Origin: Thermococcus cleftensis
GTDB taxonomy: Archaea; Methanobacteriota_B; Thermococci; Thermococcales; Thermococcaceae
DNA length: 64,000 bases
Assembly (NCBI RefSeq): GCF_000265525.1
Contig: NC_018015.1
Location: 248,001-312,000, forward strand
Direction: 5' to 3'
The notes beneath the pieces were generated by a model that worked only from the letters and a program-made list of their open reading frames with translations, was not told where the DNA came from and did no database searches. The number at the start of each line of letters is the position of its first letter. Within the stretch, counting starts at the first letter, position 1. Shown here piece after piece: positions 6,183-43,859 of the stretch. Position numbers and translations under genes: made by a program.

Positions 6183-7502
6183 ATGCGCAAAGTCGAGAGG
6201 TTTATGGAGGAGAAAGGCCTTGAAGTCGGAGATTACGTCCGGATAATCGAAAAGGAGAACGGTAACACGAGTGTCTACGAGGGCGTCGTGATGAACCCCT
6301 ACGAGCTCTCCAGCGGTGAAACGCTCACGCTGAAGCTCGACAACGGCTACAACATAGGAATCCTCGTGGACCAGATTCAGGAGATCGAGATAATCGAGAA
6401 GGCCAGACCGCTGGAAAAGGTCAAGTTCGAGGAGGTCTTCCCCAAGAAGCCGGGCCTCCCCAACGTCACCATAATCGGAACCGGCGGGACGATAGCGAGC
6501 AGGATAGATTACAAGACCGGAGCGGTTCACCCGGCTTTCACTGCGGAGGAGCTGGCCAAGGCGGTTCCGGAGATATTCGAGATCGCCAACATAACCCCCA
6601 GACTACTCATGAATATTCTCAGCGAGGACATGAAGCCGGAGTACTGGATAAGGATAGCCCACGAGGTCGCTGGAATGCTGAACAGCGGTGAGGACGGCGT
6701 TGTAATAGCGCACGGAACGGACACTATGGCGTACACCGCCTCGGCATTGAGCTTCATGCTCAGGGACCTCGGCAAGCCTGTTATCCTGGTCGGCGCCCAG
6801 AGGAGCTCGGACAGGCCGAGCAGCGATGCCGCGATGAACCTGACCTGCTCTGTGAGAATAGCAACCGCGGACTTCGGAGAAGTCGCAGTGGTAATGCACG
6901 GCGAGACCGGAGACACCTACTGCCTGGCCCACCGCGGGACCAAGGTACGGAAGATGCACACCAGCAGGAGAGACGCCTTTAGGAGCGTAAATGATATCCC
7001 TATAGCCAAGATATGGCCAGAAGGCGAGATAGAGTTCCTGCGGAAGGATTACCGGCATAGAACCGAAAGCGAGGTCTGGGTGGACGACGAGATGGAGGAG
7101 AAGGTAGCCCTCATCAAGGCATTCCCTGGAATGAGCGCTGAGATAATAGACTTCTTCGTGGACAAGGGCTACAAAGGCATAGTCATAGAGGGAACGGGTC
7201 TCGGCCACGTGCCAACCTATGTGATAGACTCGATAAGGCGCGCCACCGAGGAAGGCGTCACTGTCTGCATGACGAGCCAGTGCCTCTATGGCAGGGTGAA
7301 CCTGAACGTCTATTCCACAGGAAGGAGGCTTCTCAAGGCTGGAGTCATTCCGTGCGAGGACATGCTACCGGAGACGGCCTACGTCAAGCTGATGTGGGTC
7401 CTCGGCCACACCGACGACCCCAGGGAAGTGCGCGAGATGATGCTGACGAACTACGCCGGCGAGATAACCCCCTACACGAGGTTCGATACCTTCCTGAGGT
7501 GA
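6183..7502 (+). CDS. gatD: Glu-tRNA(Gln) amidotransferase subunit D
   Basis: With GatE, GatD converts Glu-tRNA(Gln) to Gln-tRNA(Gln), the archaeal route to glutaminyl-tRNA. The 439-residue product has an N-terminal beta-barrel domain (1-85) and then an L-asparaginase-like glutaminase domain. Its two catalytic segments are visible: GTGGTIAS at 99-106 with the nucleophilic Thr, and AHGTDTM at 176-182. GatD supplies ammonia from glutamine or asparagine. The stop is immediately followed by gatE, so the two subunits are co-translated. Confidence 0.98.
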
Positions 7503-31561: not shown

Positions 31562-32878
31562 TTGAAACGTCGCGGTTACGGTTTGCTGGCGGTCATCATC
31601 ACGGGCCTCGCGATTCGTCTCCTCCTGGCCCCCTACTCGGCCGGCAGCGACCTGCCCCAGTTCTACGGCTTCGCAGGGACGATGCTCGAACACGGTGCAT
31701 GTTTTTATTCTTACGCGGATTCGTTCGCCTACGCCGGGAAGGGCTGGCCCTACCCGTGGCCCTACGTCTACGGTCCGGTTTTGGCCTATCTGCTGGCCGG
31801 GGTCAGGATTCTGGTTGGGGGTGGCGTTGAGTCCTTTTGGAGCGATGGCGTTTACCACGTCTACGTGGACCCCACGTGGGCCTTCTCGGTCAAGCTGGTG
31901 TTCATAGCCGCTGACACCGCAGTTGCTTTTCTCATCTATCTCCTCCTCAGGGAAACGAGCGAAAGAAAGGCAGTCCTTGGAAGCGCGGTCTACTACCTCA
32001 ACCCCATCGTTATCCATGTTTCAGCTGTTTACGGCATGTTCGACGCCCTGGCCCTGGCCCCGTTCCTTCTCTCCCTCTATCTGGGGAACAGGAAGAACGC
32101 CTCCGCCTTTCTCCAGGGATTTTCCCTTGCAGTTAAGCACACCCTTCTGTTTCCAGCCATCGTTTCTTTGTGGGACTACATTCTACAAGGGGTGGAAGGG
32201 CTCAAAAAAGCCGCGCTCCTTTTCGCAGGGGCCATCGTTCCATTTCTTCCCATGCTACTGCTTTGCCCCCTCAGCCTTCGCTCCCTTCCAGATCTGATGA
32301 GGGGAATTGACATCGGCTACACTCTTCCGATGGCGTACAGTATGAACGGCTTCGTCAGCCTGGCCACGTACCTTCACGAGGTTTACGGAATCGATTCCCT
32401 GCCGTTCATCAGGCATTGGTACGTTCCAGCCTTGTTGCTCCTTTTCCTCACCCTTGTGAGACATTCCTTTGAGAGAAACTTGATAGTTTCCGTCTCGCTT
32501 GCTTACGCAGCCTTTACTGCCACCTACTGGCGCGTTAATCCCCAGTACCTCCTCCCCCTCGTCGCTTTTCTGGTTCTCCTATCCTTCACCACCCGTGGAC
32601 GGATTGGCCTGGTCTCACTCTTTACCGCCTTCTACGCAGGAATCTGGCCGATCCTCCAGCCGAGTGAGTTCTGGTTTCACGTTCACCTGCGGAATCCCAA
32701 CTGGGACGTCGTCAGGCTCGTGGGCCACTTCACGATTGGAGTTGGGGGAGACGCTCCATACGTCGTCTATTCCTTTGGTCTGACCCTCCTTCTCTACACC
32801 CTCGTTCTGGGGAGCACCCTTCCGTACCTCAAAAACCTTAAAGCCTGGCTCTCGGAGAAGTCTGGGGTGAGAGCTTGA
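31562..32878 (+). CDS. Multi-spanning GT-C-like membrane protein
   Basis: The 438-residue protein has about ten hydrophobic segments. After the first helix comes an exposed acidic segment ([17 protein letters not shown]) and an aromatic loop ([12 protein letters not shown]), the layout of GT-C glycosyltransferases that use polyprenyl-phosphate sugars with a catalytic Asp in the first loop. The start is TTG at 31562, with GGGGTGG four bases before it. There is a TATA-like cccttaaat 50 nt upstream. It overlaps the next gene by 4 nt. Mannosyltransferase is possible but not shown. Confidence 0.65.
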
Positions 32879-33261
32879 GGTACGAGAGGGACTTCACCGA
32901 CAGGGGGCTTGCGAAGCTCGGCGACTCGCTGGTTAACTTCGTCTTCTCACTCGCCTTGAGCGAGTATCTGGGCAGGCCCACAGGGGAGAGGGTTCCGAAC
33001 GCGTCGCTCACGATAGCCCTGGAGCTGGCAGGGCTGAGGCACGTGGTTCCGCCGAGAACCGACAAGCACGGAAAGGGCGACATAGCGGAGGCCATTTTCG
33101 CCTACGCGTGGCTCGAGGGGAAGATAACGGTGGAGGAAGCCGTCGAGATCTTGAGGGAGAACTTCACCGAGGACGTCACGCACTTTTCGAGAAAAAAGGA
33201 GGCGATAGGGAGAGCCTTCGCGGAGGTTTTCAGGGTGATAGGGGGGAGGTTGGGGTTGTGA
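32875..33261 (+). CDS. RNase III-fold protein with altered active site
   Basis: The 128-residue single-domain protein resembles Mini-III/RNase III catalytic domains. [17 protein letters not shown] sits where the signature ERLEFLGDAVL would be, and [15 protein letters not shown] where DVFEALIGAIYLD would be. The signature Asp and the later Asp/Glu pair are kept, but both signature glutamates (E38 and E41 in E. coli numbering) are replaced by Arg and Ala. There is no dsRNA-binding domain. TTG start overlapping the previous stop; GGGTGAGAGC before it. Confidence 0.75.
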
Positions 33262-33291: not shown

Positions 33292-33773
33292 TTAATGACG
33301 TTTTTCTTTGAAGTCCCATGCCCCCAATATTGTTTCCGCTGGTATATATTTGGCTTCCAGTTTTCGTCTCGTGGTTTCCAGGAGCAGTAACGTAACCACT
33401 GTAAACGCCGCGTTCACAACGAACAGTTGTAGAGTCCTGAACGTGCTTAACGCCAGCAGGGGAATTGCGATTTCGAAAGTTCTGTACAGGGTTCCTCCCC
33501 ATCTTAGGATCTGGTCAAATCGGGTGAAAATCCTGTAGATGACGTATGTGGCTCCAATTTCCAGCAGAAGAATGCCCGGTTGCTCCGGCGGGTAATACGC
33601 CACTATGGCAAACAATGAGAGTACTAGGCTTAGGATTGGGGCGGTTATCAGCAGGATTTTCTGCCTCTGGGGATTGCCGACAAGGTACTTTGCAGTTATC
33701 GTCGTGGCTACAAGGAAAATGATAAAAACCAAAGGATTTCAAGCACCAGTATGCCCCAGTCACCGCTGTTCAT
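33292..33773 (-). pseudogene. Small membrane protein gene, frameshifted
   Basis: A 146-residue membrane frame (three to four helices) opens at an unlikely TTG at 33732 with a stop just before it. Upstream, an ATG at 33773 has an excellent GGAGGTTGA site and encodes MNSGDWGILVLEILWF before the frame is lost. One extra T in the five-base run at 33724-33728 joins the two into one continuous protein (..EILWFFIIFLVATTITAKY..). I read this as a single gene of about 160 residues broken by a one-base deletion. It is last in the minus-strand accessory train. Function unknown. Confidence 0.6.
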
Positions 33774-33806: not shown

Positions 33807-34175
33807 CTATTCGTTCGTACCTGCGCGTGGTTTGAGGGGATTTTCTTGACTTTCAATTCTATTTGCCACGGACTCTTCGTTCTTAGGATCTCTCCGCTTT
33901 TTCCGATGCTGTAGTCTCGTTTCCAGCTCTTCGGGGGTCAGGTATTCAATCTCCGGTGGAGTTCCCAATGATGTAGTTCTCTGTACTGATTATCCCCTTG
34001 TTTTATCGTTCCCAGCCAGTTAAAAAAATCCCCAAAGTATTACTATGGGTGATGTGGCAATGGTTGCTAGAATGCCAGCCCATACTACAGACTCCGTTAT
34101 ATAAAACAGGAGGACAAAATAAAACAAAAATATGGCTACAGAAAGTTTGAAAATTCCCTCTTTAGACATGGTCAT
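33807..34175 (-). pseudogene. Remnant of a small membrane protein gene with multiple frameshifts
   Basis: From an ATG at 34175, overlapping the preceding stop (ATGA), the frame encodes MTMSKEGIFKLSVAIF and a transmembrane stretch but stops after about 35 codons. Coherent protein continues in other frames. Adding one base at the GG near 34080 gives WAGILATIATSPIVILWGFF. Removing one A from the seven-A run (34023-34029) gives NWLGTIKQGDNQYRELHHW. Adding one base at 33964-33966 gives GTPPEIEYLTPEELETRL and a hydrophilic tail ending at a TAG (33807). Hand reconstruction; about 118 residues. Confidence 0.5.
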
Positions 34176-34856
34176 TGAACATCATCTCCATACCTATCAT
34201 CTTCAATTAGATACTGGCCGAGCATGCCGATGAAACCGCCGGTTTTCACTCTTCTCTCACTCCCTTGTTCTTCTTTTTTGCTAGATTTGCAGTCGTGATT
34301 GTTGATGGCATTCTTAACCAATTTTAGCTCCGCGCGCATTTTCACGCATGCACCAGAGTTTTTCAACATCTTCATGAAGCCACCAGAGTAGGATTCCATA
34401 GGGTATCGCGAGGGGCGTGCGAAAGAGGACTGCCACTAAAACTGCAGGAAGATACACTAGGACTATCCTCGTTTTTTCGTGGTGGCATACAATGCGAAAA
34501 CCGTACCACAAGCCCAACCACAGGAAAATTCCCACAAAGGCTATTGCTCCATACTTCAGAAGCAATACTGTCAAGATTGGGAGATACCCCAAGGAAGCGA
34601 AGGAACAGGCCGATTCAACTTCTTTTCTATTTATTCCTCTCAAAGACCAAGCGAGGCTTAACAGCGAGAGAGACAGCCAAAGAAGGAATACTGCAATGAA
34701 GGCCAGAATATCATTGTTTCCATGGCTAACCTTGGCGAGATATATAATTGATACAACCACAACACCGGTTCCAATTATTGATTTTTGGTCTGAGATAAGA
34801 GCTCCTATCCCAAGGATAACCCACAAGATAATAGAAATAAAGAGGAAAATGTCCAC
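34172..34856 (-). pseudogene. Membrane protein gene with a 3' frameshift
   Basis: A GTG start at 34856 (GGAGGG seven bases before it) gives about 178 residues with five to six hydrophobic segments, ending prematurely at 34314. A second frame continues as a basic hydrophilic tail (LVKNAINNHDCKSSKK..). It ends in a TGA that overlaps the next gene's ATG, the usual arrangement in this train. Removing one base from TTTT (34322-34325) joins them into a protein of about 228 residues. Segments such as LGYLPILTVLL and GILLWWLHEDV resemble the gene at 34880. Function unknown. Confidence 0.6.
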
Positions 34857-35413: not shown

Positions 35414-36043
35414 TCACCCTCCAACAACATTGTTGTTATCCTGTTCCTGTGGAAAGTGCTCATTTCCAATAATCTCCTCGAGTATCCACTGAATGTCATT
35501 TTCATGTGTTACTCCATAAACGCCAAGGGTTATTAATATACCTACAGGATCTGAGGATATAGCTGTCCTGACAAAACCACCAATCTCTATGAGAGTCAAT
35601 CCGTGGTTTATAGCATTATCTGTTTCATCTCCGTTATAGGGAATAACCGTTATCACATCTGAAACTGGATAATTCAGTTCGCTAAACTTTGCCTCAATTA
35701 AGTATGAATGACCAGCAAACTCGTCAATATATGTCTTATAAATAGGCTTTCCGAAGTAGTAATTTGCCAAGCTATCATCTATGTCGATAGTTATTGTCAG
35801 GTCCTCCTGCATGTTGGTTGGAGTTAGGGTCACAGTTTGCTTGTTAACAGTGACGCTTTTTGGCCCGTTCGGCCACACTTTCTTACCCCCAAAGTCAACC
35901 TCTTCTAGGTTCAACGTAACCGTGTCAGTACTCTTCAGATCAAAGTGAGCAGTACAAGTGGTTGAACCGTCCCAGGGGATAACCGTAGGTTTGCACTCCA
36001 TACTTGCAATTGTATTGCTCGTGGGCTTCACTTCACCCCTCAC
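35414..36043 (-). CDS. Beta-rich protein of the accessory train
   Basis: From a GTG at 36043, overlapping the previous stop (GTGA), the product is 209 residues. The first ~120 residues look like a beta-sandwich (ECKPTVIPWDGSTTCTAHFDL, TVTLNLEEVDFGGKKVWPNG, KQTVTLTPTNMQEDLTITID) resembling CARDB/Ig-type surface domains. A hydrophobic segment follows near 165-190 (LIEIGGFVRTAISSDPVGILI) and then an acidic tail. No signal peptide is obvious from this start; an upstream start would overlap the neighbour by 85 nt. Unknown function, probably envelope-associated. Confidence 0.6.
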   Translation of the reverse strand: MRGEVKPTSNTIASMECKPTVIPWDGSTTCTAHFDLKSTDTVTLNLEEVDFGGKKVWPNGPKSVTVNKQTVTLTPTNMQEDLTITIDIDDSLANYYFGKPIYKTYIDEFAGHSYLIEAKFSELNYPVSDVITVIPYNGDETDNAINHGLTLIEIGGFVRTAISSDPVGILITLGVYGVTHENDIQWILEEIIGNEHFPQEQDNNNVVGG

Positions 36044-36444
36044 CCCGCTCCAGTGTTCGTCTCTTGGAACGAACAGTAAACAATCATAGTTGTTATTGCA
36101 CTCATGGGCACAATAAAGAGCCAAAATTGGGTTGAAGAATATGCATTGAGCATAAAGAGTGGAGTTGAAATTAGGATAAAAATTGAGAAAAATTGCTTTA
36201 CTTTTCCACTCTTTCCAAGCAAGAACTCATACACAATATCAAAGCCTAACCTGCAGTAAATGCCCTTATAAACGCGCCTACCAAGCTTTCTGACCGATGG
36301 CGCTACTGTGAATACAATGATTAGGCCAAGGACTATTCCAACAAGAGAGTTAATCCCGCTCTTAATACCGTATTTCCAAGATTCCACACCAATAAAAGCA
36401 AAGAGGAACAGGAGCAAATACCGGTATTTCGAGCACAGGGTCAT
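36040..36444 (-). CDS. Small membrane protein of the accessory train
   Basis: The 134-residue product starts MTLCSKYRYLLLFLFAFIG at 36444, with GGGGTGAG four bases before the ATG. It has four hydrophobic segments (two near the N-terminus, two near the C-terminus) and a basic loop in the middle (RKLGRRVYKGIYCRLG). It follows the truncated surface-protein copy by 11 nt and overlaps the next gene by 4 nt. No family is recognised. Confidence 0.6.
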   Translation of the reverse strand: MTLCSKYRYLLLFLFAFIGVESWKYGIKSGINSLVGIVLGLIIVFTVAPSVRKLGRRVYKGIYCRLGFDIVYEFLLGKSGKVKQFFSIFILISTPLFMLNAYSSTQFWLFIVPMSAITTMIVYCSFQETNTGAG

Positions 36445-36455
36445 GAACTCACCCC

Positions 36456-37085
36456 TCAAGTGTGTTCTAATATTCCAGGTTTGATGAACGCATTCCAAAG
36501 GAATGCCAAAGGATCAAAACTTAGCTTTGAGCTAAGTCGTATGCCTGAAATCCTTATTGAGCCCAGCTGAAAGCTAATTGCTGTATTTGGATCTACAATT
36601 GCTGCCGTCCCGCTGAGTATGTAGTCTGCCGCAACGGTTTTGCTGTCCATTTTTACCTTTCCACTTATTTTCAGGTATAAGACAGTATTCTGTGTGACTG
36701 GTTTTGGTTTAGACCACTCACTCAGTGTTTTACCAGCGTAGATTTTTAGTACCCCGTTTGTGATCTCATAGCCTCTCATGCTATCCCCGTACTCCGTGTC
36801 GTTCTCCGGCCACCACTTTGCTCCTGAATCATCGACCAGCTCAATGTTGAAAGGTCCATGCGCACAGTTCGGGTCCAAATTAGTGACGGTAATATAGACA
36901 CTCACGCTGTCCCCCGCCTCAACCCACTTGGGATAAACCTCCAAGTGACCCTCCAGGGGGACACCGCTCAAACAAGTCGAAGTCGGAGGATCTTGTATTG
37001 TTATCTCGCCGCTCCTCGAATCCTCCAGCTTCCCGTCTTCCCAAACCTCAATCCTCCAACCCTTAATGCTTTCAGTTTTCCACCC
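36456..37085 (-). pseudogene. 5'-truncated copy of the large surface protein's C-terminal region
   Basis: An open frame without a good start begins just after a stop near 37087 and runs about 208 codons. Its beginning (WRIEVWEDGKLEDSRSG) is nearly identical to residues about 724-740 of the 1085-residue protein at 39698-42955 (WRIEAWEDGKLEDSRSG). It continues in parallel (LEVYPKWVEAGDSVSVYITV against LEVSPTEMVGEGKVHVKVMA) before diverging. The N-terminal ~720 residues and signal peptide are absent. A TTG at 36971 could start a short product, but without export signal. I read it as a remnant of a second module. Confidence 0.65.
37011..37058. repeat. Partial duplication, copy 1
   Basis: A 48-base segment matching 40715-40762 at 44 of 48 positions in the same orientation, within the truncated surface-protein copy. 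The differences are at positions 7, 34, 35 and 40 of the alignment. Confidence 0.8.
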
Positions 37086-37112
37086 TCAAAGGTTCTGCAG
37101 TTTTTTACAACA

Positions 37113-37334
37113 TTAATCATAGTCTCTAGTTTTTATCGCCTGTTCTAATGATTGAACTCGCCTGTTAATGTTTGACTTCAGTTCATCAACGTCGTCGAAG
37201 AGCGCCCAGGCAAATGCCCACGGTAGCATAAAACCCAAAACTAGAGCAAAAAGTCCCCCGTAAACCCCAGTTCTCAATATCTCCGGGAGGAGTAACACTC
37301 CTAAAATAACAAGAATCACCCGGTAGGCCCTCAT
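37113..37334 (-). CDS. Tiny two-helix membrane protein with coiled-coil tail
   Basis: The 73-residue product has two hydrophobic segments (YRVILVILGVLLLPEIL and GGLFALVLGFMLPWAFAWALF), then a short heptad-like tail (VDELKSNINRRVQSLEQAI). The ATG overlaps the upstream gene's stop (ATGA). It is third of three consecutive tiny genes with membrane helix plus C-terminal coiled-coil layout, suggesting they interact. No database family recognised. Confidence 0.65.
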   Translation of the reverse strand: MRAYRVILVILGVLLLPEILRTGVYGGLFALVLGFMLPWAFAWALFDDVDELKSNINRRVQSLEQAIKTRDYD

Positions 37335-37603
37335 AACTCCCCCTCCAGCATTTTAATCCTCTCCCTGAGGAGTTCTAAGCCTGTCTCCTCTGAATAGGTC
37401 AGACCCCCGTAGGTCAAAAGTGGCACTAAGAGAAGCAGTGAGTAACCAAAGGATATCCAGGAAGTTGCAATCGCTGAAATGCTGTAGAGGGTCATGAAGA
37501 CCGATTCAAAGGCACCAGGGCGCGCTTTTAAGAGTATTCCTCCCGTGACTACCGCGTACACAAGTGCAACGATTGAATTCCAGAGTGGAAGGTAATTAAT
37601 CAT
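37331..37603 (-). CDS. Small membrane protein with coiled-coil C-terminus
   Basis: The 90-residue product has two to three hydrophobic helices (IVALVYAVVTGGILL; FMTLYSISAIATSWISFGYSLLLL) and ends in a short charged amphipathic helix (LELLRERIKMLEGEL). The start ATG at 37603 overlaps the stop of the 49-residue gene; GGAGGGGG lies upstream. Second of the three-gene coupled set. Confidence 0.65.
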   Translation of the reverse strand: MINYLPLWNSIVALVYAVVTGGILLKARPGAFESVFMTLYSISAIATSWISFGYSLLLLVPLLTYGGLTYSEETGLELLRERIKMLEGEL

Positions 37604-37749
37604 GGGTTCCCCCTCCTAAAGCGGTCTTCGAGCTGTATTAGTCGGTGATTGATTTCCTCTAGCTCTTCAAGGAGCCTGTAGCGGAAGGAGTACATTAGGA
37701 AAAAATAGAAAACCCACGGGAGCACCATTAGCAGATACTCTCCTGACAT
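37600..37749 (-). CDS. 49-residue single-helix membrane protein
   Basis: A very short gene reads ATG at 37749 to TGA at 37600, encoding one transmembrane helix (LLMVLPWVFYFFLMYSF) followed by a strongly heptad-patterned helix (LLEELEEINHRLIQLEDRF). It begins 5 nt after the stop of the 38110 gene and overlaps the next start by 4 nt, so coupling on both sides supports it as a real gene despite its size. Function unknown. Confidence 0.6.
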   Translation of the reverse strand: MSGEYLLMVLPWVFYFFLMYSFRYRLLEELEEINHRLIQLEDRFRRGNP

Positions 37750-37753
37750 GTTA

Positions 37754-38110
37754 TCAACCCCCTGGAAGGAACAGAGGCTTTAGGAAATATTCAGCCACTT
37801 TTTTGGCTTTCTCCTTCGCTGACTTATTCGTTGCAACAATTTCAGCTAAATTATACATCCCGATGCTTCCTCCTACAAGCTTGCCATATATTCCAAAGGT
37901 GGCTTCAAATGCAACTTTAGCCTTTCCTGCAAGTGCAAGTTCTACTCCTGTTGACGATTCTACGGTTGCTATCTCTGAAAAAGTGGCCAATCCTGACAAT
38001 AATAACGGTGAGAATGCCATTGCGGTTCCTTTCATAATGCCGGCATTTGCATCGCTGTTCCAGTATTTGCTTCCTGTGTACCTTGCCGTGATAATGCCTT
38101 CAAGGTTCAT
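37754..38110 (-). CDS. Alanine/glycine-rich membrane-associated protein
   Basis: The 118-residue product starts MNLEGIITARYTGSKYW with GGTGA four bases upstream. The centre is rich in small residues and hydrophobics (MKGTAMAFSPLLLSGLATF; YGKLVGGSIGMYNLAEIV), suggesting two membrane-inserting helices with glycine-zipper character. A basic stretch follows (KSAKEKAKKVAEYFLK). I do not recognise it. A pore-forming or assembly role is only a guess from composition. Confidence 0.55.
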   Translation of the reverse strand: MNLEGIITARYTGSKYWNSDANAGIMKGTAMAFSPLLLSGLATFSEIATVESSTGVELALAGKAKVAFEATFGIYGKLVGGSIGMYNLAEIVATNKSAKEKAKKVAEYFLKPLFLPGG

Positions 38111-38159
38111 ATACTCACCTGAGTCCAATCTTATTTTCAGTTTTAGGTAATGTGGAGTA

Positions 38160-38645
38160 TCAACTCTTTTGGTTGATAGCTATCTTGTATCGATTAGGAT
38201 ATTTTTCTTTTAGGCAGTTTTTAACCGCATGTTGAGTGAAATAGGCAGAGATATTCCACAAAATTATGACTATCCAAAATACTGGCTGTCTGTACGCGAT
38301 AAATGCTCCAAAGAATGTGTAAAATGTAGCTAGTGCAATGAACTTTCTGGGGTTAACTGCCCATTCAATAGCATTAATGACCTTTCGAATATTTTGATCC
38401 GATGGGATATATCCAAGTATGCAGTTTTTGATACATGCTTCGATAGAGTATGGATTGTATATTGCCAAAAGGAGAAAGTAAGCAAAAGAAAATTTAAGAG
38501 CACTGGAAATCGCCTCTGAATAGTCGTTAAGCACATGCAAAGAGAAAACGATATTGGAAAGTACAGTCACAGTCCATAGGATCATCAGATGTTTTAGATT
38601 CATTCGTTGAGTTATGGCATGTATCCCCTGTTTTAATGCTTTCAC
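38160..38645 (-). CDS. Four-helix membrane protein with NCILGY motif (paralogue 3)
   Basis: The 161-residue product from a GTG at 38645 (GGGTGA five bases before it; an ATG six codons upstream lacks a ribosome site) has four hydrophobic helices. Between the second and third lies EACIKNCILGYIPSD, which aligns with FIIRNCILGYQVSK in the gene at 39242 and FIIRYCVTGRKPDK at 38763. The three are clearly one family. The lysine-rich tail is probably cytoplasmic. No named family or function. Confidence 0.6.
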   Translation of the reverse strand: MKALKQGIHAITQRMNLKHLMILWTVTVLSNIVFSLHVLNDYSEAISSALKFSFAYFLLLAIYNPYSIEACIKNCILGYIPSDQNIRKVINAIEWAVNPRKFIALATFYTFFGAFIAYRQPVFWIVIILWNISAYFTQHAVKNCLKEKYPNRYKIAINQKS

Positions 38646-38762
38646 AATACTCACCCTTCCCATTTTGTCTATTAGGGAAACTATGTCCTTCTTAATGAGC
38701 TTAACTCAATACTTAGGAATCCAAAGCACTAGTCTGTCATGTTGTGAAATTCCTCACAGACA

Positions 38763-39178
38763 CTAGAGTTTGGCAAAATACGCCGTAAGATATGTCGATG
38801 CTATCCACAGGATGGCACTAATGGCAAATTTTGTATCTTTGTATATCATGGGCAGGCTGAAAAATACATACAATAACGCTATGGACCAGAAGTTTCTTAT
38901 ATCAGTTGCCCTACTAATGGAGCCAAGTACCCGTGAGAGGCTTTTTTTATCAGGCTTTCTCCCGGTAACGCAGTATCTAATAATAAACTCCACGATAGTT
39001 ATCTCATAGAATACAAAAAAGATTCCGAACACAACTGTGATGATAATAATGCCTTCAATTTTCTCCGGGTCAAGCCCCCAGTTTAAAAAACAAAAAGTGG
39101 CATGGAGCAAATAGTAACTACCCACAATACGAGAAGTGCTAGTATGCCCCGACGAGAGATGTACCGTTCACTCTTCAT
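38763..39178 (-). pseudogene. Four-helix membrane protein with NCILGY-like motif (paralogue 2), frameshifted
   Basis: An ATG at 39178 with a GGAGGATGAGG site encodes MKSERYISRRGILALLVLWVV and one helix, then stops at TAA within a six-A run (39085-39090 on the plus strand). The coherent remainder (NWGLDPEKIEG.. to the end, three helices, VEFIIRYCVTGRKPDK motif) is in another frame. One added base in the run rejoins them into about 138 residues matching the layout of its paralogues. A GTG inside the first part could start a 120-residue product but lacks a ribosome site. Confidence 0.6.
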
Positions 39179-39241
39179 AGCCCTCATCCTCCGAATAAGG
39201 ATTTAAGAATCTGATCCAACCATCCGTTCATCGGTTTAACA

Positions 39242-39691
39242 CTATCGGATATTATTTTCAATTGTCATTAGACACTCCTTCGCACAGGATAATGCTGTTC
39301 TCATGGTTATGTACAGATCAACGGTCCATAGGGGTACTAGCAATATCGCTAGTGGGTTCCGGGAGAGGATATACATAACAAATGCAAGCCAGGCATAGAA
39401 TAATATTGGGGCACTGAGGTACTTTAGCTCTAAGCGCTGTTGTGTTGAGATTATGATTTCTTCAAGCTCTTTTTTTGAAACTTGATACCCGAGAATGCAA
39501 TTTCTAATAATGAATCTCACGGCATCGAGGCTGTATAATCCCAGGATTAACAAATATGGGGTAGTCAGCTCAATAGAAGTGATTACACTGTGAGAAAAAA
39601 AGAATAGATAACCGAGAGTTGCCGATAACGTTACTGCAAGAGCCACCCCCACTTTATAAATTTGAAATCTATCTCTGCAGGTTAGTCCCAT
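39242..39691 (-). CDS. Four-helix membrane protein with NCILGY motif (paralogue 1)
   Basis: The 149-residue product begins MGLTCRDRFQIYKVGVAL and has four hydrophobic helices, with the family motif RFIIRNCILGYQVSKKE between helices two and three and a cysteine pair near the end (CAKEC). GGGGTGAT, which overlaps the stop codon of the large surface-protein gene, lies five bases before the ATG, so the two are translationally linked. Intact member of the three-paralogue set. Function unknown. Confidence 0.7.
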   Translation of the reverse strand: MGLTCRDRFQIYKVGVALAVTLSATLGYLFFFSHSVITSIELTTPYLLILGLYSLDAVRFIIRNCILGYQVSKKELEEIIISTQQRLELKYLSAPILFYAWLAFVMYILSRNPLAILLVPLWTVDLYITMRTALSCAKECLMTIENNIR

Positions 39692-39697
39692 AGGAAA

Positions 39698-42600
39698 TCA
39701 CCCCTGATGCTCTGAAATTTTTGATAAGATGAAATTTTTTATGGGCTGTCCGCTAATGAAGCTCAATATTGCATCTCCTCCAGGTATCTTATCTATTACT
39801 GGGAACCACTTTGTGAGTTTACTAGAGACTTTGGGGCCTTCTATGAGTAATAACAAGTCTGCAGTGACGTCTGCATATACAATACCCTGATTGACGCTGA
39901 GGCGTAATGTACTCTCTGCAATTCCTTTCACTACTATTTTGCTGACTCCGTTAATCATGCCTTCCACCGTGTAGTCCAAGTACAACGTGGCGGTGGTTCC
40001 ATCAACTCTGAGGAGCATTTGGCGATCTGTTGTGACGGTCCTGTCCTGTATTTGTATCGTTATGAATTCACCGGGTTTTACATCCTCGTTTACTGAGACT
40101 GTTGTATGATCTGGAACCGCCTCTTCTAAATCAGGTGGACTAACTGAAATTTCAGTGCTTAACTCTGTAATATGTACTGGCACATCGTTGACATTCCTGA
40201 ATTTGAGTGTACATTCCAGTGATGAGACGTAGCTTCCCTGAGTATAAAGTCTGCTGGCTTTAAAGTTAAAGTTGAGACCACTGCAGGAGATTTCGGTCAG
40301 TTCTAGAGAATACTCGAGGGGTGAAACTCTAACACTGACACTGTCAGTTTTGGTTTTAATGTAATCTAAAAGGCCACTGATGTTTTTGATTTTCAATGTG
40401 ATATTGTGATTCCCCACACTCACAGGCCAATCAAACTCATCTATAACCCTCGTCCTACCAACTAACAAGTAATTTCCGTTGGCATTCGTGTCAAATGAGT
40501 GTATTTCCTTGCCGTCCAAGTACACGCTTCCCCCAAGATACAGCAAGTCTATTGTGTCCCCACCCACATCCGGAAGAGCACTGCAGTATGATGCCATTAC
40601 CTTTACATGCACTTTGCCTTCTCCCACCATCTCAGTCGGACTAACCTCCAGCCATGCAGTCCAGTATTCTCCCTCAGGACATGGATCACTCTCTGAGATA
40701 ACACGAATTGTCCCGCTCCTTGAATCCTCCAGCTTCCCGTCTTCCCAGGCCTCGATCCTCCAGTCGTGCTCTCCAGCCTGAGCGGTCCATGTTAATGTGA
40801 CTATCATAGAATCTCCACCATGAAGAGTAACAGTCCTGCTTGATTTTTCAACCCCATCGATGAAAAGCTTTACCGTTACGGTTCTGGACGTTGAGGTGGG
40901 ATTCTTGAGGCTCACATCGAATTCCACACTATCCCCCTCAGTAGGATTATTTGGTGAAAAATCAACGTTCATACTTATAGTTTCTGAATTCACCGTAACG
41001 CTCTTCTTGACACTCTTGGAGTTCCCGTCCCATTTGATTGACGCGCTGGCAACGTAAGTGCCAGCTTCCTCGTAAGTTACCGTCTTCTTAATAATGGTAA
41101 CCTCTTCATTTGCCGGAACATCGACCGTTCCTGAATACTTCCACGAACCCGAATCGGAATAAGGAATGACGACGGAGTAATCCACTCCATTCAGTGCCAC
41201 ATTGTTCTTATTCTCGACTACGACCTTGTAAGTTACACTGTCCCCTTCCGTAATGTCATCACTGGACGTTTCTATCTTAATCCCGACCAAGTTCCAGTCC
41301 ACTGACGAGCTGAGGTCAAAGGTTGCGGAGTACTGCTCTGTGATCGTTCTAGCACTGCAGCTTGATAATATGGGTGCATCTTCTCTAGAACCAAGTGGGG
41401 ATTTATCACATTCTGGGGTGTACGTTATCTCGATTTCCCCCGTCGCGGTTAACTTTCCGTTTTCGTTTCTAATAGACGTACTGAAGGTTTTGCTCTCCCA
41501 ATTATAATCAATGTATGGATCAATCTGCGAGATGGTTTCTGAGTCAGAACGGCCCGTTGAATAGTCATGGAGATTAATCTTAACATTTTTGACAGCGTTG
41601 TTTTCCGTGTGCATGTGGACGATAACACGGTAATTAACGTAGTTTGGACCGCTTGTTAGTGGTTTTACCTCGATGTCATCAACCTTCAGTATGCCCTCTA
41701 AGGAACCCGGATCCGAGGCAATTTTCATTATCTCATCTGCCGGAATGACGGGGATCTGGTTTGAAGAGGACTCCGTAGGAGTAAGCGTTCCACCATCAAC
41801 GCCCTTGATGGAGTTTTTGAGAGGTTCCGGATTTATCGGGTCGATCGGGGTTATAGGGTCACTTGGGGGCAATTTCTTGTAGTCTGGGTTGGTTATGACC
41901 TCGCGGGATACAACGGTGACCTCGAGGGCGTCCTTAAGCTCCGCCACCTTCTGATTGAGCATCTTCGGGAGTTTAGGGTTATTGTTGCCCTGCTTCATCG
42001 CATTCACAAGCACCAGTACGTCGGAAGTTAGTTTGTACGCCTCCAGAGCGCCCGGCCAATAATACGTCGTAAGGTTTATTTCAAATCCATCTCGGTCAAA
42101 ATGTTCCTGCTCAATTCTGAATGCCATCGATCCATCATGGCCCCAAAGGACTCCCCTCAGGTTTCCGGTCGTGATTGTTATGCTCTCACCGTTGAAGAAC
42201 GCCAGCTCCACCTGCTTTGGACTGTTCGAGGAGTAAGTTATGAGTTCGTACATCGACTCTCTCAGCGGAATGATGGAGTCCCTCATTCTCTTGTAGTCAC
42301 CTTCAACGTATGAGCGGTAGAACTCAACCCACCCCCTCAGTAACAGTGGGTGTATTAAAGTTCTGTTGTCCCCTCCAGTGATTCCGGTGGGCTGGGTCCA
42401 TTTCCATTTTTCTAGTGTCCAGGTTTCGTACTCGTTGTACTTGAAGGCAACATCAATGAAGGCCATGGAAAACTCCTCGAGAAAGGCCGTCATGTTGAAG
42501 TCCTCGTTAATCTCGTCTGCATTTCTAACAATGTACTCTTCCAAAGCTTGAATCTGCTCGTCACTCCAGCCTTGAGCCTTCAAAGCCTCTACAGTCTCCT

Positions 42601-42955
42601 GGGGGAGGCCATTCCGGCTGATGTTCCGAGCCATTTCCCTTAACTCTTCGGCAGTGTAGTACGTCTTTACACCAGAAGCCTTCAGTTCCTCCAGAGCCTG
42701 CCAGATTAAGGCTGAAATATTGGCGGCATTTTCAGCACCAAGGCGAGAGTTTTGAATCAACTCCTGGGCGAGGGTGGTGTTCCTGGTGGCGTTGAACTGA
42801 ACCACGAGTTCGGCTTCCTTGTTGAGTATCTCCCAGAATTTCTCGTACGGGTCGTTCTGGGTTTCGAGGCTGGTGGCTTGGGCTGTACTTCCCGCCGCCG
42901 TCACCATCGACCCCAGCAGGAGGATTACCAACAGTACTCCTACCGCCCTCCTCAT
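39698..42955 (-). CDS. Large secreted protein with CARDB-like domains
   Basis: The 1085-residue product has a signal peptide (MRRAVGVLLVILLLGSMVTA, cleavage near 21-27). A helical N-terminal domain (30-340, WEILNKEAELVVQF..) and a Pro-rich linker (PPSDPITPIDPINPEP, near 370) follow. Beta-sandwich domains come next, including two CARDB-like units near 555-655 and 640-745 (TEGDSVTYKVVVENKNN; TEGDSVEFDVSLKNP). More beta domains follow, then a C-terminal amphipathic stretch without clear transmembrane helix or sorting signal. Many N-x-S/T sites. GGTGA before the ATG. It heads the accessory operon. Adhesion or surface-complex scaffold is inferred, not shown. Confidence 0.8.
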   Translation of the reverse strand: MRRAVGVLLVILLLGSMVTAAGSTAQATSLETQNDPYEKFWEILNKEAELVVQFNATRNTTLAQELIQNSRLGAENAANISALIWQALEELKASGVKTYYTAEELREMARNISRNGLPQETVEALKAQGWSDEQIQALEEYIVRNADEINEDFNMTAFLEEFSMAFIDVAFKYNEYETWTLEKWKWTQPTGITGGDNRTLIHPLLLRGWVEFYRSYVEGDYKRMRDSIIPLRESMYELITYSSNSPKQVELAFFNGESITITTGNLRGVLWGHDGSMAFRIEQEHFDRDGFEINLTTYYWPGALEAYKLTSDVLVLVNAMKQGNNNPKLPKMLNQKVAELKDALEVTVVSREVITNPDYKKLPPSDPITPIDPINPEPLKNSIKGVDGGTLTPTESSSNQIPVIPADEIMKIASDPGSLEGILKVDDIEVKPLTSGPNYVNYRVIVHMHTENNAVKNVKINLHDYSTGRSDSETISQIDPYIDYNWESKTFSTSIRNENGKLTATGEIEITYTPECDKSPLGSREDAPILSSCSARTITEQYSATFDLSSSVDWNLVGIKIETSSDDITEGDSVTYKVVVENKNNVALNGVDYSVVIPYSDSGSWKYSGTVDVPANEEVTIIKKTVTYEEAGTYVASASIKWDGNSKSVKKSVTVNSETISMNVDFSPNNPTEGDSVEFDVSLKNPTSTSRTVTVKLFIDGVEKSSRTVTLHGGDSMIVTLTWTAQAGEHDWRIEAWEDGKLEDSRSGTIRVISESDPCPEGEYWTAWLEVSPTEMVGEGKVHVKVMASYCSALPDVGGDTIDLLYLGGSVYLDGKEIHSFDTNANGNYLLVGRTRVIDEFDWPVSVGNHNITLKIKNISGLLDYIKTKTDSVSVRVSPLEYSLELTEISCSGLNFNFKASRLYTQGSYVSSLECTLKFRNVNDVPVHITELSTEISVSPPDLEEAVPDHTTVSVNEDVKPGEFITIQIQDRTVTTDRQMLLRVDGTTATLYLDYTVEGMINGVSKIVVKGIAESTLRLSVNQGIVYADVTADLLLLIEGPKVSSKLTKWFPVIDKIPGGDAILSFISGQPIKNFILSKISEHQG
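40715..40762. repeat. Partial duplication, copy 2
   Basis: A 48-base segment inside the large surface-protein gene matching 37011-37058 at 44 of 48 positions. It lies in the CARDB-like domain at the point where the truncated copy begins. Confidence 0.8.
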
Positions 42956-43052: not shown

Positions 43053-43859
43053 TCACAGGCTCGTCAGAAGCTCTATCAACCCCTGCTTCGTTGGAACCTT
43101 CGCGAACTTCTCCGGGTTCTTGACCTTGAGGAGGAGGGGAACCTCGCCGAAGAGCCTCAGCACCTTTCCAAAGGGTATGTTGCCCTCCCCCGGCAGGAGG
43201 TGAAGGTCGCCGACACCGTAGGCGAGGGCATCTTCGGGCTCAACCTGCGGGAAGAGCTTTCCGAAGTTGTCGTGTATCATGAGGATTATCGTCTTGTCAG
43301 TGCCAAGCTTCACATCTTCCAGCAGCTTGTCCGCGTCGCCCTGGGCGCTGAGGAAGGCGTGGGCCACGTCGAGGGCAAAGCCGACGTTCTCCCTGTTCAC
43401 GTTCTCGACGACGTAGAGGGTGTCCTTGACGCTGAAGGTGTTCTCGAGGGCTATCTTTATGTCAAAGGGGTGAACCATGTCGGCAAGCTGTTGAATGGCC
43501 TCTATTTCAAGGTCCAACCTTCCAGTTCTACCGCTCTGCATGACTATTACCTTGGCGCCGAGCTTTATGGCAACGTCCGCTATTGCCCTCGCGACGCGGA
43601 AGTGCCTGGTGTAGTAGATGTGGTCGCGCAGATTGACGGAGGTCGGCATTCTTACGATGTAGTCTATGCCAACGCCCCTGAGCGTGGTCTCGACGTTCCG
43701 GAGCTTCTTCTCAACCACGACGCCGTTCTTTATGAGGCCTAAGGTGTGGGGGAATATCGAGACGAAGTCGTAGTTCTTTATCTTGACGTCCGCCAGAACT
43801 GAGGCGAGGGTCTTGTCCTTCGTGACGAAGTGCGGGTAAACTGTCACTCCTATCTCCAT
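43053..43859 (-). CDS. Sugar phosphate isomerase/epimerase-like TIM-barrel protein
   Basis: The 268-residue product has the xylose-isomerase-like/AP-endonuclease-2 barrel pattern. Features include an N-terminal strand EIGVTVYPHF, then GAKVIVMQSGRTG, a glutamate in ALENTFS, DVAHAFLS (Asp/His metal ligands), MIHDNFG and PGEGNIPFGKVL. These positions carry the metal ligands in the family. The substrate is unknown: isomerase, epimerase or endonuclease IV relative. A TATA box (gcttttatat, 43891-43900 on the minus strand) is 32 nt upstream. Confidence 0.85.
   Translation of the reverse strand: MEIGVTVYPHFVTKDKTLASVLADVKIKNYDFVSIFPHTLGLIKNGVVVEKKLRNVETTLRGVGIDYIVRMPTSVNLRDHIYYTRHFRVARAIADVAIKLGAKVIVMQSGRTGRLDLEIEAIQQLADMVHPFDIKIALENTFSVKDTLYVVENVNRENVGFALDVAHAFLSAQGDADKLLEDVKLGTDKTIILMIHDNFGKLFPQVEPEDALAYGVGDLHLLPGEGNIPFGKVLRLFGEVPLLLKVKNPEKFAKVPTKQGLIELLTSL

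What the first reader, a model, noticed from the sequence alone, without database searches (positions are those of the whole stretch)
36456..42955. Two tandem modules, the second lacking most of its large protein
The frame at 36456-37085 reproduces the C-terminal part of the 1085-residue protein, starting abruptly at WRIEVWEDGKLEDSRSG, and is again followed by a train of membrane proteins. A 48-base segment (37011-37058 and 40715-40762) matches at 44 positions. This suggests module duplication followed by 5' deletion, or a silent donor cassette for gene conversion.
Basis: seen in the sequence. Interest (0 to 1): 0.6.

Follow-up and report, generated by a model that had tools for sequence, protein, structure and literature searches.

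The report
Silent spare tail for archaeal surface protein
A heat-loving archaeon (Thermococcus family) carries a large surface protein gene plus a silent, startless spare tail that shares with it only a 50-base block of near identity; relatives show that this block is where tails are swapped, which places recombination sites that the discoverers of this gene module (VARTIG) could not locate.

Summary
The 44/48 match is real (46/50, E 7e-16), but 36456-37085 does not reproduce the big protein's C-terminus: similarity stops at the block and the rest is a different tail. The locus is a VARTIG module (Makarova 2021). The fragment lacks a start codon and signal peptide: a silent tail cassette. In relatives the same tail is fused to the main protein exactly at this block (G039, G044), while this genome's main tail is an orphan in G037 and G043.

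New: (1) the block ("hinge", last beta-hairpin of an Ig domain) is homogenised within genomes (51 nt: 88% within, 77% between, 0/5000 shuffles), and orthologous orphans of G000 and G013 show a conversion tract confined to it; the original paper saw no recombination within loci. (2) Within-locus direct repeats (109 direct, 1 inverted, 69 loci) peak at two joints, about 340 and 220 residues before the main protein's end. (3) The last ~45-65 residues (tip) predict the next membrane gene: 33/33 cognate pairs, whichever Ig domain precedes. This fits effector-tip/immunity pairs; toxicity is untested. Duplication plus 5' deletion is not supported; the silent-cassette reading largely is.

The parts
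39698..42955 (-). main VARTIG protein, 1085 aa, hydrophobic N-terminal signal, Ig/CARDB domains, tail type A
   Evidence: CARDB above Pfam cut-off
40763..42955 (-). conserved body (residues 1-731), shared among Thermococcales main proteins with different tails
   Evidence: separate matches to body and tail break at the hinge in nearly all hinge-bearing loci
40713..40762 (-). hinge (joint 1) in the main gene: WRIEAWEDGKLEDSRSG, last beta-hairpin of an Ig domain
40322..40414 (-). joint 2 equivalent in the main gene (last beta-hairpin of the next Ig-like domain, GNHNITLKIKN...); repeated within other loci, single copy here
39698..40030 (-). tip A of the main protein
39242..39691 (-). membrane partner of tip A
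38763..39125 (-). second tip-A partner paralogue (N-terminus appears to lie in another frame)
38160..38663 (-). third tip-A partner paralogue, multi-TM
37754..38128 (-). orphan tip C (its homologue forms the C-terminal end of the main ORF in G047)
37603..37752 (-). small protein following tip C (partner C, first of three)
37331..37603 (-). small membrane protein of the tip C partner set
37113..37334 (-). small membrane protein of the tip C partner set
36456..37085 (-). orphan tail B cassette: hinge + Ig B + tip B, no start codon or signal peptide
37009..37058 (-). hinge in the orphan: WRIEVWEDGKLEDSRSG
36653..36668 (-). junction inside the orphan: about 450 bp present in G039 and G044 are missing here, with 7-11 bp of overlap at the break
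36456..36656 (-). tip B (ends ...WNAFIKPGILEHT)
36040..36444 (-). partner B, predicted helical membrane protein; directly follows tip B in 13 of 16 tip B matches, the other three having a different end segment
35414..36124 (-). orphan tip D (ends DNNNVVGG, the VARTIG DNNxxxGG motif)
   Evidence: motif from PMC8416519
34880..35407 (-). tip D partner 1, about 4 TM
34314..34856 (-). tip D partner 2, about 5 TM
33881..34260 (-). decayed further tip-plus-partner unit; in G037, G047, G071, G043 and G044 its end lies just upstream of an orphan hinge
33292..33732 (-). another VARTIG membrane gene (follows tip-D-like tails in other loci)
32875..33261 (+). RNase III-like gene bordering the locus (as arCOG05836 in the VARTIG paper)
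   Evidence: PF11469, E 1.9e-57
43053..43859 (-). xylose isomerase-like TIM barrel gene, border on the other side in G000, G016, G022, G039, G044, G047, G071

Best explanation
This is a VARTIG locus: one secreted Ig-domain surface protein (fixed body + exchangeable tail + tip) followed by a stack of silent tail and tip cassettes, each with its own membrane partner genes. 36456-37085 is such a cassette, not a truncated duplicate. Homologous recombination or gene conversion at a ~50-nt hinge, the last beta-hairpin of an Ig domain, moves tails between the main gene and cassettes and, with DNA from other cells, between species; a second joint one Ig domain further on allows tips to be exchanged too. 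Shown by sequence: cassette anatomy, natural fusions at the hinge, within-genome homogenisation, a conversion tract, tip-partner linkage. Inferred: that switching occurs in living cells. Inferred more weakly: that the tip is an effector acting at the membrane and the adjacent membrane protein its immunity partner, as in polymorphic toxin systems.
For: Hinge: 46/50 nt in G000, with chance-level identity after it. 25 hinges of 13 genomes: within-genome identity 87.6% against 77.2% between, 0/5000 label shuffles; 60 nt after it 23% within. Codon matches at identical residues 0.75 within and 0.54 between, against about 0.35 expected from codon usage. Conversion tract: G000 and G013 orphans are orthologous (58/60 nt before, 70/79 after), yet at all 4 informative sites inside the hinge G013's orphan carries the main-gene state. 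Natural fusion: in G044 one gene matches G000's main body (77%) and G000's orphan tail (92%), meeting at the hinge. Swap: tail A is main in G000, G013, G016 but orphan in G037, G043; tail B is main in G039, G044 but orphan in G000, G013, G022, G047, G071. Repeats: 109 direct against 1 inverted in 69 loci, 0 in five control stretches; in main genes all 44 matches lie in the last ~370 residues, peaking at 200-250 and 325-350 from the end. Tip-partner: A-A 4, B-B 13, C-C 5, D-D 11, no crossed pair, while Ig A or Ig B may precede the same tip. Of 14 orphan leaders, 10 have no ATG and none looks like a signal peptide. P. furiosus recombines with 40 nt of flanking homology (PMC3462420).
Against: No strain pair or population showing a switch was available; genomes are one per species. 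This orphan is internally shortened and G013's orphan is broken by stops, so some cassettes are decaying rather than kept as donors. The nearest hinge neighbour is in the same genome in only 13/21 cases for joint 1 and 18/45 for joint 2, so interspecies transfer is also strong. Label shuffles ignore relatedness. Tips have no recognisable toxin fold, are modelled with low confidence, and are mostly not predicted transmembrane.
Confidence: 0.8

Rival explanations
1. The whole module was duplicated in tandem and the second copy lost its 5' part.
For: Same order (large Ig protein part, then small membrane genes) and a 46/50 shared block.
Against: Tail and partners of the second unit are of another family; no DNA homology outside the hinge; the nearest relatives of the orphan are in other genomes (97% to G039, 92% to G044, 93% to G013 in successive stretches), not the resident main gene.
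Confidence: 0.05
2. The hinge is similar only because the protein motif is under constraint; no recombination is involved.
For: It is a beta-hairpin with a conserved motif across the family.
Against: Synonymous codons match far above codon-usage expectation and more within than between genomes; conversion tract in G013; 109 direct against 1 inverted repeats; fusion exactly at the joint.
Confidence: 0.07
3. Tail switching is real but serves surface variation or kin/mate recognition (pilin- or MHC-like); partners are dedicated anchors, chaperones or export helpers, not immunity proteins.
For: No toxin domain found here or in PMC8416519; Ig, complement-like and alpha-2-macroglobulin-like folds; DNNxxxGG sorting-like ends.
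Against: Partner B domains outnumber tip B (27 against 16) and occur in tandem or without a tip, as expected of immunity genes; the partner follows the last ~45-65 residues rather than the Ig domain.
Confidence: 0.4
4. 36456-37085 is a normal small secreted Ig protein expressed on its own.
For: Open frame of 209 codons; the paper describes smaller Ig proteins in these loci.
Against: No start codon before the hinge and no signal peptide; the orthologue in G013 is interrupted by stops.
Confidence: 0.08

Closest known systems
VARTIG modules of Thermococcales (arCOG07710; Makarova et al. 2021, PMC8416519)
   Same: Large secreted Ig/CARDB protein first, variable C-terminus, small proteins matching its C-terminus, membrane genes behind it, RNase III-like neighbour, DNNxxxGG end on one cassette, Thermococcales.
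   Different: The paper found no recombination within loci, expected sites spread over about 600 nt and could not place them; here two discrete joints, within-locus homogenisation, startless cassettes and a tip-partner rule are shown.
Rhs main/orphan toxin loci (Salmonella, PMC3967940)
   Same: Downstream orphan C-terminus without translation start, own partner gene, stretch of near identity with the main gene (522 bp, 95%) used for switching.
   Different: No sequence relation; here ~50-nt homology, archaeal Ig body, no identified toxin, switching not observed.
Neisseria MafB and mafB-CT silent cassettes (PMC4287609)
   Same: Alternative C-terminal cassettes without start codons next to cognate partner genes; the same C-terminus is main in one strain and cassette in another.
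   Different: Unrelated proteins; MafB is a demonstrated toxin.
Pilin silent-cassette gene conversion
   Same: Silent partial copies donate sequence to an expressed surface gene through short shared blocks.
   Different: Here whole tails with partner genes change, not short variable segments of one fold (comparison from general knowledge).

Membership tests
VARTIG | large (>500 aa) arCOG07710-type protein with N-terminal signal, first gene of the array | tested here: met
   homologues in 53 of 94 Thermococcaceae genomes; hydrophobic segment 4-22. The arCOG number itself was not assigned by a tool.
VARTIG | Ig/CARDB domains in the C-terminal half | tested here: met
   CARDB above Pfam cut-off; serial beta-sandwich domains with complement/alpha-2-macroglobulin matches
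VARTIG | smaller proteins in the locus align with the main C-terminal region; membrane genes follow | tested here: met
VARTIG | hypervariable C-terminus by recombination | tested here: met
VARTIG | RNase III-like arCOG05836 neighbour (several loci) | tested here: met
VARTIG | DNNxxxGG C-terminal motif (31 proteins of the family) | tested here: met
   35414-36124 ends DNNNVVGG; the main protein itself ends SEHQG, without it
VARTIG | GN motif and conserved serine near the Ig region | not tested
   reported in the paper, not examined here
Polymorphic toxin system | conserved N-terminal part with exchangeable C-termini and standalone cassettes | tested here: met
Polymorphic toxin system | cognate partner (immunity) gene directly after each C-terminus | tested here: met
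   33/33 recognised pairs cognate, none crossed; immunity function itself not tested
Polymorphic toxin system | recognisable toxin domain | tested here: not met
   no Pfam or NCBIfam match to tips; tip modelled with low confidence
Polymorphic toxin system | kills or inhibits cells lacking the partner | not testable with these tools
   needs a co-culture experiment

The most novel reading that the evidence does not exclude
VARTIG is an archaeal contact-type antagonism system with a two-joint modular design: body | hinge | Ig adaptor | joint 2 | membrane-acting tip + multi-TM immunity gene. Tails and tips are switched through ~50-nt homology blocks coding for Ig beta-hairpins, from a stack of silent cassettes in the same locus. 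The absence of nuclease toxins would be explained by tips that act on membranes.
Probability: 0.45. Interest if true: 0.75.

Novelty: new member of a known kind. Interest (0 to 1): 0.6.

Why it matters
The discoverers of VARTIG stated that recombination sites could not be identified and that no recombination within loci was seen. This locus and its relatives place the sites at two short joints, show within-locus homogenisation and a conversion tract, and give a tip-partner rule that turns the three published hypotheses (toxin, complement-like, recognition) into specific gene-deletion tests in tractable archaea.

Tried and rejected
Pfam and NCBIfam searches of tips and partners: nothing above cut-off; a weak TcdA/TcdB pore match of tip C (E 0.09, below cut-off) is treated as chance. 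Partner B fold against PDB: no match at E<=0.001; sequence profile against PDB: none. Scan of genome contigs gave one MAG relative only; plasmid records gave none. A first HMM run timed out; two alignment calls had wrong coordinates. Duplication plus 5' deletion was rejected because only the hinge is shared. Motif constraint alone was rejected by codon-level comparison.

Full report
Observation. It is the only such direct repeat in the locus, and none occurs in five control stretches of about 10 kb of the same window. The match ends sharply on both sides: 7/30 before and 14/60 after. At the protein level the frame aligns to the main protein at 26% over 183 residues, driven by WRIE[AV]WEDGKLEDSRSG. 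The orphan frame has no start codon before this block.

What the locus is. Homologues of the 1085-residue protein occur in 53 of 94 Thermococcaceae genomes searched. Anatomy and neighbours match the VARTIG module of Makarova et al. 2021 (PMC8416519): large secreted Ig/CARDB protein, small C-terminal homologues, membrane genes, an RNase III-like neighbour at 32875-33261 (PF11469), and a DNNxxxGG end on the cassette at 35414-36124. Seven genomes carry their VARTIG genes between the same two borders, the RNase III-like gene and a TIM-barrel gene, with different cassettes in between.

The orphan is a tail cassette. The same tail (type B) is fused to the main protein in G039 and G044, and is an orphan in G000, G013, G022, G047 and G071; the main tail of this genome (type A) is main in G013 and G016 but orphan in G037 and G043. 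In G044 a single gene matches G000's main body (76.7%) and G000's orphan tail (92.4%), meeting at the hinge. The stretch 36000-38200 is a mosaic: 36000-36660 is 97% like G039, 36653-37058 92% like G044, 36714-38099 93% like G013. Compared with G039 and G044 this orphan lacks about 450 bp inside the tail, so it may be a shortened or decaying cassette.

Recombination at the hinge. Twenty-five hinge copies from 13 genomes were compared. Within-genome DNA identity over 51 nt is 87.6%, between genomes 77.2% (0 of 5000 label shuffles reach it), while the following 60 nt are at chance within genomes. At identical amino acids, codons match 0.75 within and 0.54 between genomes, with 0.35 expected from codon usage. 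Orphans of G000 and G013 are orthologous on both sides (58/60, 70/79), but inside the hinge all four informative sites of G013's orphan carry the main-gene state, and the orphan state returns at position 51: a conversion tract confined to the hinge. The published study reported no indication of recombination within loci and could not identify the sites.

Two joints. Self-comparison of 69 loci gave 109 direct and 1 inverted repeats. In main genes (52 ORFs over 700 aa) all 44 repeat matches lie within about the last 370 residues, with peaks 200-250 and 325-350 residues from the end; 42 of 44 second copies lie downstream. Joint 1 is the hinge, joint 2 the motif FLDNYDGKPNGxGEEHWSEVxVEVK at the end of the next Ig-like domain (within-genome 79.0%, between 71.6%, 0/2000). 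In the AlphaFold model of the tail (mean pLDDT 72) both fall on the last beta-hairpin of a sandwich domain; the terminal ~60 residues are unresolved. Foldseek matches are complement C5 and alpha-2-macroglobulin-type domains with low TM-scores, in line with the paper.

Tip and partner. Profiles for tips A-D and for membrane partners were searched separately over all loci. Where a tip is directly followed by a recognised partner, the pair is always cognate: A-A 4, B-B 13, C-C 5, D-D 11, none crossed; 17 tips had no recognised partner, several because their last residues belong to another variant (tip A of G013 and G016 ends differently and lacks partner A). Ig type does not decide: Ig A and Ig B each occur before tip B and before tip D. 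Partner B is predicted helical, all its hits in the phylum set lie in Thermococcaceae (18 of 115 genomes), and it outnumbers tip B (27 against 16). This is what an effector-tip/immunity arrangement predicts, but toxicity has not been shown, no toxin domain is recognisable, and an anchor or chaperone role is a live rival.

Mechanism. Most likely tails are exchanged by ordinary homologous recombination or gene conversion through ~50-nt blocks. This is feasible: marker replacement in Pyrococcus furiosus works with as few as 40 nt of flanking homology and the strain is naturally competent (PMC3462420). The logic resembles Rhs orphans (PMC3967940) and mafB-CT silent cassettes (PMC4287609). Switching in live cells is inferred.

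Limits. One genome per species; label shuffles do not correct for relatedness; simple hydropathy was used for membrane segments and signal peptides; only ATG was counted as a start in the orphan leaders other than this one; the VARTIG assignment was made by anatomy and neighbours, not by an arCOG profile.

Noticed in passing
33881-34260: Remains of another tip-plus-partner unit, with stops, between 34314 and 33732; its end (IIGNSTEIEYLTPEELE) recurs just upstream of orphan hinges in G037, G047, G071, G043 and G044.
   Followed up: partly
38763-39178: The N-terminus of the second tip-A partner appears to lie in another frame around a T-rich run, so this gene may be broken or frameshifted.
   Followed up: no
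L066 (G000:C1:918000-937000): A second VARTIG locus in the same genome with a 1114-residue main frame, 42-45% identical to this body.
   Followed up: partly
L134 (G000:C1:1080000-1090000): A 1331-residue frame with weak similarity to the Ig region (E 7e-4), probably outside VARTIG.
   Followed up: no
L071, L072, L074 (orphan hinges at 7285, 6314, 6263): Upstream of several orphan hinges lie remnants of the preceding main-gene sequence broken by stops, suggesting cassettes displaced from a former main gene.
   Followed up: partly
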